A DNA stretch of 39,385 nt from Promethearchaeota archaeon (GTDB lineage: Archaea; Asgardarchaeota; Lokiarchaeia; Sigynarchaeales; SOKP01): contig WJKD01000538.1 of the NCBI GenBank assembly GCA_014729315.1, positions 1-39,385 on the forward strand. The letters run 5' to 3'. Numbering within the stretch: the first letter of the stretch is position 1; each line of letters starts with the position of its first letter. A program made the position numbers and the translations under genes. Shown one piece after another: positions 3 through 37,670 of this stretch. The notes beneath the pieces were generated by a model that did not search any database, was not told the DNA's origin, and saw only the letters and a list, made by a program, of their open reading frames with translations.

Positions 3-422
3 GTACCCCATCTTAAATTAATATCAGAGACTATACCTGAAATGCCTAAATCGATTCTCGACATTAATGTGATTCCTCAAGATCTTGGGGAATTTATTCG
101 TCCAATCAAACCTTCTCCTAAATCAATCACGATCAAATACAAAAATGTTAATCTTTTGTCCGAAAAAGCTTGTTCTGCTTGTATATCTACGGTATTTAAT
201 CTGATTAAAAACAATGAGGAATATATAAACTCTCATTTCACTCCCCAAAAACCATTGAATTTAGCAATTGGAAAGGGATTAAAAGAATCAGATCTTTATT
301 CAGACACGTATATAATTGGAAATTGCACTTTCGATCATAAAAGTAAAGGGAGATTCATAAAAGGTTGTCCGCCCGTTGAGTCTAAAATTTTAAGTACGAT
401 TAAGGAACATATCGATTCTTAA
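3..422 (+). CDS. C-terminal part of a DUF362-like iron-sulfur protein (truncated by window edge)
   Basis: The reading frame is open from the left edge (first full codon at base 3), so this is the tail of a longer protein and the ATG at 42 is probably internal. Four cysteines stand out: a CSAC pair near the middle, then GNC and a GCPPVE motif close to the end. That arrangement, with an 'IGKGL' strand between them, resembles the C-terminal part of DUF362-type proteins as I remember them, and could bind an Fe-S cluster. The N-terminal domain that would settle the family lies outside the window. Function is unknown. It ends about 90 bases before the convergent zinc-ribbon gene, with an A/T-rich stretch between. 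Confidence 0.5.
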   Translation, partial: VPHLKLISETIPEMPKSILDINVIPQDLGEFIRPIKPSPKSITIKYKNVNLLSEKACSACISTVFNLIKNNEEYINSHFTPQKPLNLAIGKGLKESDLYSDTYIIGNCTFDHKSKGRFIKGCPPVESKILSTIKEHIDS

Positions 423-511: not shown

Positions 512-880
512 TTATTCAATTACATTTCCGCAATAAGCACAGAAAATTCCCTCTCTCCCGTTGATGGAGACACCACAGCTGGGACAAAAGGTAGCCTCTA
601 AATTCTCTTCCAGCGAAGGAAGCATATTTTGCTGTTCCTCTCTGGGAGCGGGCAATTGTTCTTTTGGAATCGTCTTACTTGTTTTGTCTTCTAATTTCTT
701 CTTAACTTCGCACTTCGTATAACAATGAAGGCAACGATCTGGTCTTTTATCTACATAATATAGGATATAAATAACTAAACCTATACCAGTAAACGCTAAA
801 AGAAACGCTAAAAGAAAACTAAAATTCTCGCGCCTTGTTAGGACATTTTGCTGACAATTAGGGCAATACATTTTTGACAT
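512..880 (-). CDS. Membrane-anchored LITAF-like zinc-ribbon protein, paralog 1
   Basis: A 122-aa protein. A first CxxC knuckle (C6/C9) and a second (C50/C53) flank one hydrophobic segment (about residues 20-42) with a central GIG. A separate C-terminal zinc ribbon follows a polar linker (C99/C102 and C114/C117). A zinc ribbon split by a membrane-inserted hydrophobic stretch is the architecture of the eukaryotic LITAF domain; the resemblance is architectural and inferred by eye. If the hydrophobic segment dips into the membrane and returns, the two knuckles could form a single zinc site at the surface. The start is ATG at 880, with a GAGG Shine-Dalgarno match at 889-892. Two paralogs follow on the same strand. 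Function unknown. Confidence 0.72.
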   Translation of the reverse strand: MSKMYCPNCQQNVLTRRENFSFLLAFLLAFTGIGLVIYILYYVDKRPDRCLHCYTKCEVKKKLEDKTSKTIPKEQLPAPREEQQNMLPSLEENLEATFCPSCGVSINGREGIFCAYCGNVIE

Positions 881-1027
881 TATTTTATCCTCGCATTAGT
901 ATTATTTCAATTTCTATGAACTTAATTAAAAAAAATTGAAAATGATACTAAAATAATATTTAGTCCGATTTTTGCGTAAAAACACAATTATTACAATAAA
1001 AAATAAGAAAGTAACTTAAAAGTGAAC

Positions 1028-1423
1028 TCAAATTTCGCTTCCGCAATTAGGACAAAATTTTTGATTTCGAGCATCCAATTGAGCTCCACATAAAGGACAA
1101 AATTTTGCTCTTTGACTTTCAATTTTTTCGATAGTTGGTCTAGAAGAAACGCTCGTTTTTTCTTGACTATAGGTTGCTTCGCGTTTGGGTGGAAGGTACT
1201 CAATTGGTTTAATACCTTGGGGAAGAGTTTGAGTTATCTTCGTATTACAGTGAATGCAGCGATCTTCCTTTTTTGAATAGTAGATTATGAGATAAATAAA
1301 TAAACCTACTCCAAATGTACAACATAGCAAGATGATTGCTAAAAAAGTGTCTATTGGTTCCCGAACAAGTAGAACCCTTTCTTGACAATGAGGACAATAC
1401 CCCGTTGGATTACTAGTGGGCAA
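1028..1423 (-). CDS. Membrane-anchored LITAF-like zinc-ribbon protein, paralog 2
   Basis: A 131-aa protein with the same plan as its neighbour. Knuckles at C10/C13 and C56/C59 bracket a hydrophobic stretch (about 26-49) with a central GVG and an IY pair. A serine/threonine-rich linker and a C-terminal zinc ribbon (C109/C112, C124/C127) follow. The start appears to be TTG at 1423, just before the first knuckle; no better ATG lies upstream in frame. The position-by-position match in the core and the tandem placement show a gene duplication, while the linkers have diverged. A membrane-surface adaptor or regulator is possible, but nothing here shows a partner. Confidence 0.7.
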   Translation of the reverse strand: MPTSNPTGYCPHCQERVLLVREPIDTFLAIILLCCTFGVGLFIYLIIYYSKKEDRCIHCNTKITQTLPQGIKPIEYLPPKREATYSQEKTSVSSRPTIEKIESQRAKFCPLCGAQLDARNQKFCPNCGSEI

Positions 1424-1539
1424 AATTTGTTTAAATCTATTTAATTTAAATTGATAATATTTGTAAGGAATAAATAAACTTATTAATATATTATTTTCCT
1501 TTTGTGAATCTGTATTCTCTTAAACAAGCGAGATGCGTT

Positions 1540-1782
1540 TTACAAGCCAATGTCTAAATCTTGGTTTTTAATAACCTTTCCAATTTTCAAAAGACCTTCG
1601 CAATGAGGACAATATTTTTTCTTCTTGAAAGATAAATAAAGTAGTAATGGAATTAATCCGATTCCTATAGTGGATATGATAATTAGAAACCACAAAGATT
1701 TGTACCTACTCTCCATAGGTTTCTTAATGGGTTTTGGAATTGATCTTTCGCATGTTAAACAATAGGCAAAATCCTTTTTCAT
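1540..1782 (-). CDS. Short LITAF-like zinc-ribbon membrane protein, paralog 3
   Basis: An 80-aa protein that is the minimal version of the trio: knuckles C8/C11 and C58/C61 flank a hydrophobic stretch (about 30-51) with a central GIG, and the extra C-terminal zinc ribbon is absent. The sequence after the second knuckle (YCPHC then a short LL-containing strand) resembles the end of animal LITAF domains from memory. ATG start at 1782. It is the upstream-most of the three co-oriented genes and faces the divergent thymidylate kinase gene across about 150 bases of A/T-rich DNA that should hold both promoters. Confidence 0.68.
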   Translation of the reverse strand: MKKDFAYCLTCERSIPKPIKKPMESRYKSLWFLIIISTIGIGLIPLLLYLSFKKKKYCPHCEGLLKIGKVIKNQDLDIGL

Positions 1783-1934: not shown

Positions 1935-2528
1935 ATGAGACCAATTTTTTGCGTAATCGATGGCATAGATGGAGCAGGCACTACTACTCATAGTAAACTT
2001 TTAGTACATTATTTAGAAAACAGAGGTATAAAAACCCATCTTACCCAAGAACCATCTCACAACCCAATAGGTCTTTTAATAAGAAATATTTTGAAAGACG
2101 AAAATGTTCCTCCTGCAACTGATGCCCTTTTATTCGCCGCCGATCGAAATTTACATTACCATAACGAGATAAGGAAGAAACTAGACGAGGGATACACTGT
2201 TATCTCGGACCGATATATTGAATCGTCAATTATTTACCAGTCTCTGCAATCAAAAGATATAACGATAGATTGGGTTAAATCGATCAATAAATTTGTGGGA
2301 GAAGCGGATCTTACAATAATCTTAGACATTGATCCTCGGATCTCTTTGAAAAGAAAGAAAAAACAAGACTTAGAAAAATTTGAAAAAACGGAGTTTTTAG
2401 CTAAAGTAAGAAACCTTTATCTTGAAAGAGCGAAACAAAACGAATACCATGTAATTAGCTCTGACGACGAGATTACAATTGTCCAACAGAAAATTAAAAA
2501 AATTTTTTCTAATATTTTGAAAGAATAA
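1935..2528 (+). CDS. tmk: Thymidylate (dTMP) kinase with altered P-loop
   Basis: A 197-aa nucleoside monophosphate kinase of the usual Tmk length; it phosphorylates dTMP to dTDP in the cytoplasm. Seen: an N-terminal P-loop (residues 10-18, GIDGAGTTT), AADR near residue 69, the DRY motif in VISDRYIESS followed by a YQ pair, and a lysine-rich LID region (about 134-142). The P-loop lysine of the GxxxxGK(S/T) consensus is replaced by threonine; the codons (GGC ACT ACT ACT) are clear. I recall the same GAGTTT variant in some bacterial Tmk proteins, so it is probably active. ATG start, with a TATA-like element about 40 bases upstream. Divergent from the zinc-ribbon trio. Confidence 0.9.
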   Translation: MRPIFCVIDGIDGAGTTTHSKLLVHYLENRGIKTHLTQEPSHNPIGLLIRNILKDENVPPATDALLFAADRNLHYHNEIRKKLDEGYTVISDRYIESSIIYQSLQSKDITIDWVKSINKFVGEADLTIILDIDPRISLKRKKKQDLEKFEKTEFLAKVRNLYLERAKQNEYHVISSDDEITIVQQKIKKIFSNILKE

Positions 2529-34633: not shown

Positions 34634-35398
34634 ATGGAACCGCTATTAGAAAGTATAATCTTAGACTTACTTTTGATGTTAATCGTATTTGGCTATGTAT
34701 TTCTAACTATTATCATACCAGTACAATTAAAAAAGAGAGACATAATTTCCAAGTTTGCTGCTCGAAAAATGGTGCATCTTTTTGCGGGATTAAGCGTATT
34801 AAGTACACCTTTTTTTAGATGGCCATATTTCTCTATTGTAATTGCCGGATCGTTAACAATATTAACCTACTTTAGCTCAAAAAATAGTTCTATTAAAAAA
34901 TTAAAAGAATTATACGACACAATCGGCGAAGAAGCCGAGGAACAATTAAATCGTAAATATCTTCAAGGACCTTTCCATTATTGCTTGTCAATAACGCTTT
35001 TAGTGTCGATATTCGTAATCTTTGCACCGCATCAGCTCTATTTTCCAATTGCAGGTATTTTAATAATGATTATATCTGATACTTTAGCTTCGATTGTTGG
35101 TAAAAGATGGGGAAGAATTAAAATTAAATTTCCTTGGACTGGACATCGAACCCTATTAGGTTCGTCTGCAATGTTTGTTTCAGCGCTAATATTAACTTTT
35201 GGGTCGTTTTTCTATTTCGGCCTATTCAATCCACTTACTCAAGTTCCATTAACATGGAATATAATCATTCTTTATGCGTTTATTACGGCAATTCTGGCAA
35301 CAGTAATAGAACTCTTATCTCCAAGCACTTGGGACGATCTTACAGTTCCTATCGGCTGTACACTTATAATATATCTATTATTTTGTATTTATATTTAG
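34634..35398 (+). CDS. VTE5/SEC59-type lipid kinase (phytol/geranylgeraniol/dolichol kinase-like)
   Basis: A 254-aa polytopic membrane protein (six or seven helices). It carries the CTP-dependent lipid-kinase motifs: RKMVHLFAG (44-52), ISDTLASIVGKRWG (147-160), GHRTLLGS (160-167), and ELLSPSTWDDLTVP (226-239), the counterpart of the E-SP-DNLTVP motif of VTE5/VTE6. These enzymes phosphorylate isoprenoid alcohols such as phytol, geranylgeraniol or dolichol. It is the first gene of a plus-strand unit with geranylgeranyl reductase and GGGP synthase, so a geranylgeraniol or polyprenol substrate is a reasonable inference. CDP-archaeol synthase is a different family. The ATG lies about 20 bases after a TATA-like ATTATAAA. 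Confidence 0.8.
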   Translation: MEPLLESIILDLLLMLIVFGYVFLTIIIPVQLKKRDIISKFAARKMVHLFAGLSVLSTPFFRWPYFSIVIAGSLTILTYFSSKNSSIKKLKELYDTIGEEAEEQLNRKYLQGPFHYCLSITLLVSIFVIFAPHQLYFPIAGILIMIISDTLASIVGKRWGRIKIKFPWTGHRTLLGSSAMFVSALILTFGSFFYFGLFNPLTQVPLTWNIIILYAFITAILATVIELLSPSTWDDLTVPIGCTLIIYLLFCIYI

Positions 35399-35444
35399 TT
35401 AATTATTTTTTTATTTTTAATTTATTAAGGGGTATAGGGTAAAA

Positions 35445-36830
35445 TTGCAAAAGTCCTTTGATGTCATCGTTGTTGGGGCAGGAACGGGTGGTTCTATAGC
35501 AGCTCGTTTTTGTGCAAAACAAGGATTGAAGGTATGCTTAATAGACCGCAAGCCAAGAAGAAGAATTGGCGATAAGATATGTGGAGATGCTGTTGGCTCC
35601 GATATCTTCAATTTTTTAGATATTAAACCTCCTCAAGGTGAAGAATTGTCGACTCACATCAAAGGTGCTAAACTATACGCTCCTAATCGAAAGAAATGTA
35701 TCACTCTTGTAGACCCTAAACAAGTAGGATATATTGTTAATCGATTGGAGTTCGGTCAACGACTATTAAAGGAAGCTCTCGATGAAGATATTAGCGAATT
35801 TATGGATAAGACCATTGCTCTGAATTTACTATATGAAGATGATTCTGTTTCAGGAGTAAAAGTTCGAGATAATAACGGAGAAACATTAGATCTTAAATCT
35901 AAAATTGTTATAGACGCGAGCGGATTTTACTCACCCTTAAGAAAAAAAACTAGAGCAAAGAGCTTAATCGAAAAAGAAATTTCAGACGCTGATGTAATTT
36001 TATGCTATAGAGAAATTATAAAATTCCCTAAAAATGATCAAGAAGTGAAGGATGTTGAATACATATCAATCATTCTAGATCAAGAAAAAGCGCCAGGCGG
36101 ATATATCTGGTATTTTCCAAAAGATGAGCATTCGCTTAACATTGGATTAGGCGTTTTTCCGCATTTTAAAGGAAAAGTTAAAGAATTATATAAGAAACAC
36201 GTGTTTAACAGCTTTATTGAAACTCAAAATTACGAGATCATTTCGTCGGGAGGAGGTGTTGCTCCAGTTAGGAGACCATTATGGTCTTGTGCTGATAATG
36301 GTTTGATGCTTGTAGGAGATTCAGCATGTCAAGTAAATCCTATTCACGGAGGAGGTATCGATTCATCTATGAGAGCAGGATATTATGCTGCGATCAACGC
36401 AAAATCGGCAATTGATGCTGCTGATACGAGCTTAGATTATCTCTGGAAATATAATTGTGATATAATGGCGAGTTTTGGTGCTGAATTCGCCTCTCTTGAC
36501 TTGCTTAGATTAGTATTACAGAACCTAACGAATTCAGACATCAATTTTGGATTAGATCGCGATTTATTATCTGGTGAAGAGATTTTAGAAATAACCTCAA
36601 CGGGTAATCTTAATTTGGATATATTCGATTACGCAATAAAGGCAATTAAAGGAATTTCTAAACCAAATCTCCTTTTAGATTTGAATTTTCTACGAATTAG
36701 GATGGAAGAAATCTCGAAGCTTTATCAAAACTTTCCACAATCGAGAGACCAATTTCCTAAGTGGAGAGAGAAAGTTTTACAAATTTATGAAAAAATTAGG
36801 AAATTAGTAATTAATAGTAAAAATAAATAA
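35445..36830 (+). CDS. Geranylgeranyl reductase-family flavoprotein
   Basis: A 461-aa FAD enzyme that saturates geranylgeranyl chains of archaeal lipids. Seen: the dinucleotide-binding GAGTGG (11-16), C46 in KICGDAV (a conserved cysteine of archaeal geranylgeranyl reductases), the YIWYFPK signature (220-226, matching the YxWxFP motif), and GDSACQVNPIHGGG (291-304) for FAD. Related proteins act on tocopherol/chlorophyll side chains or menaquinone, but the GGGP synthase neighbour favours membrane lipid saturation. TTG start at 35445, with an AAGGGG element at 35428-35433. It follows the kinase gene by 46 bases and precedes GGGP synthase closely. Confidence 0.9.
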   Translation: MQKSFDVIVVGAGTGGSIAARFCAKQGLKVCLIDRKPRRRIGDKICGDAVGSDIFNFLDIKPPQGEELSTHIKGAKLYAPNRKKCITLVDPKQVGYIVNRLEFGQRLLKEALDEDISEFMDKTIALNLLYEDDSVSGVKVRDNNGETLDLKSKIVIDASGFYSPLRKKTRAKSLIEKEISDADVILCYREIIKFPKNDQEVKDVEYISIILDQEKAPGGYIWYFPKDEHSLNIGLGVFPHFKGKVKELYKKHVFNSFIETQNYEIISSGGGVAPVRRPLWSCADNGLMLVGDSACQVNPIHGGGIDSSMRAGYYAAINAKSAIDAADTSLDYLWKYNCDIMASFGAEFASLDLLRLVLQNLTNSDINFGLDRDLLSGEEILEITSTGNLNLDIFDYAIKAIKGISKPNLLLDLNFLRIRMEEISKLYQNFPQSRDQFPKWREKVLQIYEKIRKLVINSKNK

Positions 36831-36854
36831 GTAATTGAATAATTAGTGAAAATT

Positions 36855-37670
36855 ATGGTAAATGTGCTAATGAAAGAATCAGCTGGAAATAGTACATACG
36901 AATATATTATTAAAAAAATCAATAGCGAAGGCGCGCTTCATTTCTCACTGTTAGATCCAGATCCTATAAAACAGAGCCCTTCAAAGGCAGCTAAAATGGC
37001 ATATTATGCCTCAGAAGCTGGAACTGATGCGTTTCTTCTTGGAGGGAGCACGATATTCGATCAAGGTTATGTGGATAAGACGATTGAAGCAATTAAAACT
37101 AAGGTTGAAGAGCCAATAATTATTTTTCCGGGGGGAATTGCCAACGTATCTGAAAAAGCTGACGCCATCTTTTTCATGTCGTTATTAAATTCTTCCGACC
37201 CATATTTCATAATAGGGCAACAAGCTTTAGCGTCGTATATAATTAAACTAGCAAATCTCGAACATATCTCAATGGGATATCTTATCATCGAACCTGGAGC
37301 TTCTGCGGGATGGATTGGCAACGCAAGACTCATGCCAAGGAAAAAACCTAAATTAACCGCTGCCTATTCCTTAGCTGCTGAAATGTTCGGATTTAAAATG
37401 ATATATTTAGAAGCAGGTTCTGGAAGCGAGAAAATACCTCCAGAAATTATTAAATTATGCAGTAAAATAGTATCTATTCCCATTATTGCGGGTGGAGGAG
37501 TGAATAGCAAGGAAGATGCCAAGTTATTTGTCGATGCTGGCGCCGATATTATTGTGATGGGAACATTTATAGAACAAAATGTTTTAAAAGATAAGGGTGC
37601 TTCTTTAAAAGTCATTATAGACGAGATTAAAGAAGTTGGTGGTAAAAAAAAGAAGAATTTTTCATTATGA
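36855..37670 (+). CDS. Geranylgeranylglyceryl phosphate synthase
   Basis: About 271 aa, TIM-barrel, the first committed step of archaeal membrane lipids: it joins geranylgeranyl diphosphate to sn-glycerol-1-phosphate. Motifs: LLDPDP near the N-terminus, LGGSTIF, PGGIANVSEKADAIFFMSLLN, IEPGASAGWIGNARLMPR, MIYLEAGSGSEK and IIAGGGVNSKEDA. The DPDPIKQSP and YLEAGSG blocks are diagnostic for the larger archaeal/bacterial group II enzymes. Starts at ATG 36855, GTG 36846 or ATG 36870 are all possible; none has a clear ribosome binding site, and translation may be coupled to the reductase gene just upstream. No DGGGP synthase is in the window. Confidence 0.92.
   Translation: MVNVLMKESAGNSTYEYIIKKINSEGALHFSLLDPDPIKQSPSKAAKMAYYASEAGTDAFLLGGSTIFDQGYVDKTIEAIKTKVEEPIIIFPGGIANVSEKADAIFFMSLLNSSDPYFIIGQQALASYIIKLANLEHISMGYLIIEPGASAGWIGNARLMPRKKPKLTAAYSLAAEMFGFKMIYLEAGSGSEKIPPEIIKLCSKIVSIPIIAGGGVNSKEDAKLFVDAGADIIVMGTFIEQNVLKDKGASLKVIIDEIKEVGGKKKKNFSL

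What the first reader, a model, noticed from the sequence alone, without database searches (positions are those of the whole stretch)
512..1782. Three tandem LITAF-like membrane zinc ribbons in an archaeon
In all three proteins two CxxC knuckles, 40-46 residues apart, flank one hydrophobic stretch with a conserved G(I/V)G, the layout of the eukaryotic LITAF domain (zinc ribbon split by a membrane-inserted helix). LITAF proteins sit on late endosomes and bind ESCRT-linked partners. If the organism is Asgard, which carries ESCRT genes, a tandem family of this kind would bear on the origin of endomembrane adaptors. The similarity is by layout and a few residues only.
Basis: partly seen in the sequence, partly recalled or inferred. 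Interest (0 to 1): 0.72.

Follow-up and report, generated by a model that had tools for sequence, protein, structure and literature searches.

The report
Lokiarchaeal membrane-anchored split zinc ribbons
Three neighbouring genes in an Asgard archaeon make small proteins whose zinc-binding fold appears to be interrupted by a membrane-inserting stretch, the same build as the LITAF domain of endosomal proteins in animals and plants, but it is not shown that they share ancestry with it.

Summary
Three minus-strand genes encode proteins in which two CxxC knuckles, 40, 42 and 46 residues apart, flank one hydrophobic stretch with G(I/V)G. They belong to a real family: strong matches in 66 of 227 Promethearchaeota genomes, all inside one class of 83 searched genomes, two of them named Lokiarchaeota. 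The cassette lies divergently beside thymidylate kinase in 23 of 23 loci inspected.

Pfam's LITAF model hits P1 above its cut-off, P2 and P3 just below; databases already call some relatives LITAF-like. Controls limit the claim: artificial generic zinc ribbons split by unrelated transmembrane segments score about as well in profile comparison, so homology to eukaryotic LITAF is not separable from shared layout. LITAF's proline-rich, ESCRT-binding N-terminus is absent, recognised neighbours are housekeeping genes, and no strong match was found in 144 other Asgard genomes.

Most likely: monotopic proteins on the cytoplasmic face, one zinc closing a ribbon over a shallow hydrophobic hairpin, with a second ribbon (P1, P2) as binding head. 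AlphaFold2 breaks the helix at GxG at low to moderate confidence; topology and zinc are untested. New variant of a known kind; a link to the origin of endomembrane adaptors is unproven.

The parts
512..880 (-). P1: LITAF-like split zinc ribbon + C-terminal zinc ribbon, 122 aa; 'last' gene of the cassette
   Evidence: ORF; PF10601 26.7 bits (cut-off 23.8) and DZR 28.6 (27.3); 30 further relatives at E<=1e-19
854..865 (-). P1 first CxxC knuckle (C6-C9)
   Evidence: sequence; invariant
752..826 (-). P1 uncharged hydrophobic stretch (residues 19-43) with GIG at 32-34
   Evidence: sequence; AF2 helices 22-30 and 34-44
722..733 (-). P1 second CxxC knuckle (C50-C53)
   Evidence: sequence; invariant
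530..586 (-). P1 C-terminal four-cysteine ribbon (C99-C117)
   Evidence: Pfam DZR; cysteines invariant in 60 of 60
1028..1423 (-). P2: LITAF-like split zinc ribbon + C-terminal zinc ribbon, 131 aa (TTG start); 'middle' gene
   Evidence: ORF; PF10601 21.5 bits (below cut-off), Zn_Ribbon_1 33.3 and DZR 31.7 (over)
1385..1396 (-). P2 first CxxC knuckle (C10-C13)
   Evidence: sequence
1274..1348 (-). P2 uncharged hydrophobic stretch (residues 26-50) with GVG
   Evidence: sequence
1247..1258 (-). P2 second CxxC knuckle (C56-C59)
   Evidence: sequence
1043..1099 (-). P2 C-terminal four-cysteine ribbon (C109-C127)
   Evidence: Pfam
1540..1782 (-). P3: LITAF-like split zinc ribbon only, 80 aa; 'first' gene; lacks the C-terminal ribbon that the other 21 of 22 non-redundant sequences of its type have
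   Evidence: ORF; PF10601 21.0 bits (below cut-off), its best Pfam match; groups with 15 other first genes at 100/100
1750..1761 (-). P3 first CxxC knuckle (C8-C11)
   Evidence: sequence; invariant in 29 of 29
1627..1698 (-). P3 uncharged hydrophobic stretch (residues 29-52), GIGLIP
   Evidence: sequence; AF2 helices 25-38 and 43-51
1600..1611 (-). P3 second CxxC knuckle (C58-C61)
   Evidence: sequence; invariant in 29 of 29
1935..2528 (+). thymidylate kinase, divergent neighbour; not part of the system, marks the conserved locus
   Evidence: PF02223 165 bits; beside the cassette in 23 of 23 loci

Best explanation
A family of small membrane proteins of one Asgard class (Lokiarchaeia by its named members), built like the LITAF domain. 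Shown: two invariant CxxC knuckles interrupted by one hydrophobic stretch with a conserved glycine at a near-fixed distance from the second knuckle; tandem copies; conserved locus. Inferred: both knuckles lie on the cytoplasmic face and share one zinc, closing a ribbon that pins the hydrophobic part as a shallow hairpin (turn at GxG) in the inner leaflet. In P1 and P2 a linker carries a second zinc ribbon that would act as a cytoplasmic binding head; P3 is anchor only. Proposed role (weakest step): peripheral membrane adaptors or curvature-supporting proteins, like LITAF, perhaps mixing as hetero-oligomers since diverged paralogues are kept side by side.
For: Cys4 invariant in 38 of 38 and 60 of 60 rows. 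P3 has only four cysteines in all, as have 4 of 14 single-domain (A-type) relatives, so a one-zinc Cys4 site within one molecule needs both knuckles on the same side. Lys/Arg on both flanks of the hydrophobic stretch in 70 of 71 non-redundant sequences. AF2 of P1 and of P3 each give a beta-hairpin at knuckle 1, then helix, break at GxG, helix, then knuckle 2. A glycine lies 18 residues before knuckle 2 in P1, P2 and P3, in 13 of 14 A-type, 31 of 35 C-type and 5 of 22 B-type sequences, and in 10 of 12 animal and 20 of 20 plant LITAFs. PF10601 at E<=5e-5 in 18 of 38 family members against 1 of 38 artificial chimeras. LITAF is monotopic, binds one zinc and supports curvature (PMC5095921, PMC5142333, PMC8353527; passages read).
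Against: AF2 confidence is low to moderate (mean pLDDT 67.9 and 64.0, pTM 0.36 and 0.33) and I had no coordinates, so a kinked transmembrane helix is not excluded. The uncharged span is 18-30 residues, in most members long enough to cross a membrane. Net charge is zero or positive on both flanks in only 47 of 71. 10 of 14 A-type and 27 of 35 C-type sequences have cysteines beyond those of the knuckles and ribbon, so other metal or disulfide arrangements are possible there. No fold match covers the split domain. No neighbour was recognised as a membrane-traffic gene. Function is by analogy only.
Confidence: 0.6

Rival explanations
1. On ancestry: convergence. A Lokiarchaeal zinc ribbon acquired a hydrophobic insert between its knuckles independently; it resembles LITAF by layout only and shares no special ancestry with it. 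(This and the next rival concern ancestry; the last two concern mechanism, so the odds do not sum to one.)
For: Artificial profiles of generic ribbons with mixed unrelated TM segments reach hhalign scores of 38.8 +/- 3.3 (max 46.0, 40 replicates) against eukaryotic LITAF. The real family scores 41.8 as a whole, P3-type (B) 43.9, but P1/P2-type (C) only 31.3 and A-type 30.9. Permuting the family's inner columns in blocks of 4 leaves 39.7 +/- 3.0. With knuckle neighbourhoods kept and the inner part shuffled in blocks of 4, only 3 of 71 real sequences beat 95% of their own decoys (15 of 71 with blocks of 6, 38 of 71 with free shuffling). Register tests (full permutation) give p of 0.09-0.67 for nine of ten family-LITAF comparisons, 0.02 for one. 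Strong matches are confined to one class.
Against: The same tests are weak even for true relatives: animal against plant LITAF scores 49.5 with 13 of 60 block-4 permutations as high, while B-type against LITAF has 3 of 60 (block 4) and 0 of 60 (block 8). Decoys with one TM family each score only 29.5 +/- 3.4. PF10601 over cut-off in 51 of 227 Asgard genomes, all 51 inside the class, and in 0 of 14 controls, so the layout is not common. P1, P2, P3 share the glycine at -18, and P3 shares LIP with animal LITAF in register.
Confidence: 0.5
2. On ancestry: true LITAF-domain homologues. The domain was present in an Asgard ancestor or moved between Lokiarchaeia and eukaryotes, and the eukaryotic form later gained its proline-rich ESCRT-binding tail.
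For: P1 passes the PF10601 gathering score; 37 of 38 members match at E<=1, best 9.1e-9; profile-profile probability 95% for the whole family and for B-type over 56-58 columns; glycine register shared; one N-side register comparison (C-type with animals) at p 0.02.
Against: Ribbon-plus-TM decoys about match these scores, C- and A-type profiles score below them, and one of 38 chimeras passes E<=5e-5. No strong match in 144 Promethearchaeota genomes outside the class, so if eukaryotes branch near Heimdallarchaeia (recalled) loss or transfer must be assumed. Only animal and plant LITAFs were compared.
Confidence: 0.35
3. On mechanism: single-span membrane proteins, one knuckle in the cytoplasm and one outside, each completing a zinc or disulfide site with another copy or paralogue.
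For: Uncharged spans of 22-28 residues in C-type and 21-30 in B-type would cross a membrane; AF2 output does not fix the angle between the two helices; extra cysteines in many members.
Against: Lys/Arg on both flanks in 70 of 71; glycine pair in mid-span; near-fixed distance to knuckle 2; all four cysteines kept together.
Confidence: 0.2
4. On mechanism: membrane-tethered zinc-ribbon regulators. The C-terminal ribbon binds nucleic acid, ribosome or an enzyme, and the split ribbon is only an anchor; no role in shaping membranes.
For: The C-terminal ribbon is of the generic DZR kind and the family profile matches rubrerythrin and ribosomal-protein ribbons weakly over that part; recognised neighbours are housekeeping genes.
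Against: P3 and all 14 A-type sequences lack that ribbon.
Confidence: 0.25

Closest known systems
LITAF / CDIP1 (SIMPLE-LITAF domain, Pfam PF10601), eukaryotes
   Same: Two CxxC knuckles split by one hydrophobic anchor of about the same length; glycine 18 residues before knuckle 2; Pfam match (P1 over cut-off).
   Different: No N-terminal proline-rich region with PSAP/PPxY; no His two residues before knuckle 2 (0 of 71); usually an extra C-terminal zinc ribbon (56 of 71); tandem paralogues at a fixed locus. Cysteines in the anchor: none in P1 and P3, two in P2; at least one in 28 of 71 family sequences.
Double zinc ribbon DZR (PF12773) and other zinc-ribbon domains
   Same: C-terminal ribbon of P1 and P2 passes the DZR cut-off.
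   Different: The N-terminal half is a ribbon opened by a hydrophobic segment.
Caveolin- and reticulon-type membrane hairpins (named in PMC5095921 passages)
   Same: Proposed hairpin inserted from one side of the membrane.
   Different: Recalled to have no zinc ribbon; not compared by sequence here.

Membership tests
LITAF-domain proteins (PF10601) | Two CxxC pairs flanking a single hydrophobic anchor | tested here: met
LITAF-domain proteins (PF10601) | Pfam gathering score, P1 | tested here: met
   26.7 bits against 23.8
LITAF-domain proteins (PF10601) | Pfam gathering score, P2 and P3 | tested here: not met
   21.5 and 21.0 bits; 18 of 38 family members reach E<=5e-5
LITAF-domain proteins (PF10601) | Profile similarity beyond shared layout | tested here: inconclusive
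   hhalign 41.8 whole family, 43.9 B-type, 31.3 C-type, 30.9 A-type against 38.8 +/- 3.3 for ribbon-plus-mixed-TM decoys and 29.5 +/- 3.4 with one TM family each; Pfam 18 of 38 against 1 of 38; low power shown with animal-plant LITAF
LITAF / CDIP1 family (eukaryotic architecture) | N-terminal proline-rich region with P(S/T)AP and PPxY | tested here: not met
   0 and 1 of 71; median 9 residues before the first knuckle; feature per PMC5142333 section 5 and PMC5095921 passages
LITAF / CDIP1 family | His two residues before knuckle 2 | tested here: not met
   0 of 71; HYCPNC of human LITAF quoted in PMC5095921. My own eukaryotic set was cut with a pattern that requires this His, so it is no independent witness
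LITAF / CDIP1 family | Monotopic, both termini cytosolic | not testable with these tools
   needs a topology assay; sequence hints only
LITAF / CDIP1 family | One zinc per protein, needed for membrane association | not testable with these tools
   known for LITAF (PMC5095921 passages)
LITAF / CDIP1 family | Zinc-ribbon fold of the split domain | tested here: inconclusive
   strand or bridge residues at both knuckles in AF2 models; no fold match over that part
Double zinc ribbon DZR (PF12773) | Pfam gathering score | tested here: met
   P1 28.6 and P2 31.7 bits against 27.3, (C-terminal ribbon)

The most novel reading that the evidence does not exclude
These are prokaryotic LITAF-domain homologues: a class-wide, multi-paralogue set of monotopic, zinc-clamped membrane-curvature proteins in Lokiarchaeia, from whose kind the eukaryotic endosomal LITAF adaptors descend (or to which they were passed), before eukaryotes added the ESCRT- and NEDD4-binding tail.
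Probability: 0.28. Interest if true: 0.8.

Novelty: new variant of a known kind. Interest (0 to 1): 0.45.

Why it matters
If the topology is as inferred, an archaeal lineage studied for the origin of eukaryotic membranes makes several small proteins that enter the membrane from the cytoplasmic side and are locked by zinc, a build that the passages I read describe for eukaryotic LITAF and CDIP1. That is testable in vitro at once. If they are also true homologues, LITAF would gain an archaeal relative; if convergent, it shows the build can arise from zinc ribbons anew, which warns against reading Pfam LITAF hits as eukaryotic signature proteins.

Tried and rejected
Reading the Pfam pass as proof of homology: rejected after decoys. 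Chimeras of family C-terminal ribbons and unrelated TM segments score median 8.7 bits (90th percentile 16.7, max 29.8, n=2000) against a home-made profile of 32 animal and plant LITAF domains; the 71 real sequences have median 14.9, 37% lie above the decoys' 90th percentile and 3% above the 99th. Family knuckles with unrelated TM segments: median 10.7, 90th percentile 19.7, and 21% of real sequences lie above that. Generic knuckles with family inner parts: median 12.5. Most of the signal lies in the residues next to the knuckles (8.8 bits), less in the inner part (1.3, 3.6 or 5.3 bits by kind of shuffle). Further hhalign decoys: generic ribbons with B-type inner part 41.4 +/- 2.0, B-type knuckles with one unrelated TM family 32.8 +/- 3.7.

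ESCRT or traffic neighbours: genes around 23 cassette loci and 32 other loci were clustered; none was recognised, but only seven window proteins were run through Pfam and the rest judged by eye.

A lost C-terminal ribbon of P3: the 116-base gap to P2 holds no CxxC pair in any frame of that strand.

Limits: the eukaryotic set comes from the 120 listed of 1194 hits, animals and plants as far as they are named; 116 were cut by a pattern that requires H.CP.C, 33 kept as non-redundant, one mis-cut row (P0222) dropped, one (P0237) excluded beforehand. Five protein hits are named Thor-, Hod- or Hermodarchaeota (P0072, P0076, P0077, P0088, P0095) although no genome outside the class matched at E<=1e-10; unresolved. 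Sixteen genomes outside the class had weak PF10601 hits (E<=0.01, none over cut-off), as had one control, Sulfolobus acidocaldarius. In the class 79 of 83 match at E<=1e-5, but the weaker of these may be plain ribbons, since the profile includes the C-terminal one. The 20 extra cassette loci were picked from PF10601 hits, not at random.

Full report
WHAT IS THERE. The window's left end carries three minus-strand genes, P3 (1782-1540), P2 (1423-1028) and P1 (880-512) in order of transcription. Each begins with a CxxC knuckle near the N-terminus (C8, C10, C6), then 40-46 residues that hold a single uncharged hydrophobic stretch of 24-25 residues with GIG or GVG in its middle, then a second CxxC. 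P1 and P2 continue through a linker into an ordinary four-cysteine ribbon (Pfam DZR over cut-off in both); P3 stops. Gaps between the genes are 116 and 147 bases, so one transcript is possible but not shown.

A REAL FAMILY. The first protein search found 30 further relatives, those with names being Promethearchaeota or Lokiarchaeia; a genome scan gave two Lokiarchaeota contigs. In an alignment of 38 diverse members, window trio included, the four cysteines are invariant and the glycine nearly so. A profile of that alignment finds strong matches (E<=1e-10) in 66 of 227 genomes of the phylum; all 66 lie in the class of the Lokiarchaeota contig L002, of which 83 genomes were searched, so 66 of 83 inside and 0 of 144 outside.

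A FIXED LOCUS. In 23 of 23 cassette loci inspected (window, L001, L002 and 20 chosen from the hit list) the genes are transcribed away from thymidylate kinase, and M28 peptidase, leuC/leuD, HD-domain and ribosomal-S2-like genes recur beyond it at many of them (Pfam for thymidylate kinase, M28 and HD, the other names by eye). The cassette has 4 genes at 6 loci, 3 at 10, 2 at 6 and 1 at 1. In a tree of its 67 genes, 16 first genes including P3 form one group (100/100), and P2 falls in a group of 27 (100/97) made of 22 middle genes, four first genes and one single gene; the last genes, P1 among them, are less well resolved (midpoint root). This suggests that the types split before these genomes diverged. 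P3 is the longest end branch (1.72) and lacks the C-terminal ribbon that the other 21 of 22 non-redundant sequences of its type have, so it may be drifting. Two further types live elsewhere: a single-domain type and a long P3-like type, each with its own recurring neighbours.

IS IT LITAF? By Pfam, PF10601 hits P1 at 26.7 bits (cut-off 23.8), P2 at 21.5, P3 at 21.0, in each case over most of the model, and the N-terminal piece of P1 alone at 28.2 bits with the next family at 14.6. Among 38 family members 37 match at E<=1 and 18 at E<=5e-5. In genomes, 51 of 227 pass the cut-off, all inside the class, and 0 of 14 controls; 16 genomes outside the class and one control have weak hits below it. 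NCBI already names one relative 'LITAF-like zinc ribbon domain-containing protein' and UniRef another 'LITAF domain-containing' (P0052, P0057), so the resemblance is not new to databases. In print I found nothing on it: searches for LITAF with Asgard and with Lokiarchae gave no paper; for LITAF with archaea 20 of 26 papers were listed and for the domain's database names 20 of 23, none on archaea by title. Listings only, except the four papers named here, of which I saw passages and, for PMC5142333, section 5; the one archaeal mention in PMC5142333 is a reference title.

CONTROLS. A 2010 paper on membrane segments in domain models lists the SMART LITAF model among them (PMC2912341, passage), so I built decoys. 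With only cysteines fixed and other residues shuffled in blocks of 4, 48 of 71 real sequences beat 95% of their own decoys against a profile of 32 animal and plant LITAFs. With the residues beside the knuckles also fixed, 3 of 71 do (15 with blocks of 6, 38 with free shuffling). Chimeras of generic ribbons and unrelated TM segments match PF10601 at E<=5e-5 in 1 of 38 cases and at E<=1 in 20 of 38. Profile against profile, the whole family scores 41.8 and the P3-like part 43.9 (95% probability) against LITAF, but the P1/P2-like part only 31.3 and the single-domain part 30.9; animal against plant LITAF scores 49.5. Generic ribbons with mixed TM segments score 38.8 +/- 3.3 (max 46.0), with one TM family each 29.5 +/- 3.4. 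Permuting inner columns in blocks of 4 gives scores as high as the real one in 13 of 60 cases for animal-plant LITAF and 3 of 60 for the P3-like part, so the membrane part is a poor witness even among true LITAFs. The glycine 18 residues before knuckle 2 occurs in 10 of 12 animal, 20 of 20 plant, 13 of 14 A-type and 31 of 35 C-type sequences but only 5 of 22 B-type (the other B-type ones have a G at 19); register tests give p of 0.09-0.67 in nine of ten family-LITAF comparisons and 0.02 in one. Verdict: built like LITAF, homology undecided.

HOW IT PROBABLY WORKS. LITAF is monotopic, binds one zinc, loses membrane association when a cysteine of either knuckle is mutated, and supports high curvature (PMC5095921, PMC5142333, PMC8353527; passages). 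Here P3 has exactly four cysteines, so a one-zinc site within a molecule needs both knuckles on the same side; Lys/Arg flank the stretch on both sides in 70 of 71 sequences, though net charge is zero or positive on both sides in only 47 of 71; many relatives have further cysteines; and AF2 breaks the helix at GxG in both P1 and P3 (mean pLDDT 67.9 and 64.0). These point to a shallow hairpin entered from the cytoplasm, but no coordinates were available to me and a kinked spanning helix is not excluded. The ESCRT-I and NEDD4 motifs of LITAF are missing (P[ST]AP 0 of 71, PPxY 1 of 71), so whatever the archaeal proteins recruit is recruited otherwise, most simply by the C-terminal ribbon.

BEARING ON EUKARYOTE ORIGINS. 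Weak as it stands: one class only, no recognised traffic genes nearby, no proline-rich tail, homology unproven. The family remains worth a topology and zinc test.

Noticed in passing
window 42-422: This 126-aa ORF clusters with longer genes at other loci (1236 bases in L002), so it is probably the 3' end of a gene cut by the window's edge; no Pfam match.
   Followed up: partly
window 1540-1782: P3 is a long branch without the C-terminal ribbon of its type; possible decay of one cassette member.
   Followed up: partly
L018-L046: Single-domain relatives lie beside genes that look by eye like archaeal AdoMet synthetase and an AN1-finger/M50-type membrane protease; long P3-like relatives beside a MiaB-like gene (names by eye).
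   Followed up: no
window 34634-37670: GGGP-synthase-like gene (PcrB family) next to a geranylgeranyl-reductase-like and a membrane kinase-like gene (by eye; the latter without Pfam match): possible archaeal ether-lipid cluster.
   Followed up: no
P0072, P0076, P0077, P0088, P0095: Hits named Thor-, Hod- or Hermodarchaeota; the four read (all but P0077) are of the P3-like type and close to Lokiarchaeal ones, in conflict with the absence outside the class: mislabelled or mis-binned MAGs, or real spread.
   Followed up: partly
model of P1: An unnamed viral predicted protein, A0A2Z4GYZ6 (106 aa), is the best viral fold match (E 3.7e-3, probability 0.97) but superposes poorly (TM 0.31, rmsd 21.1).
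   Followed up: no
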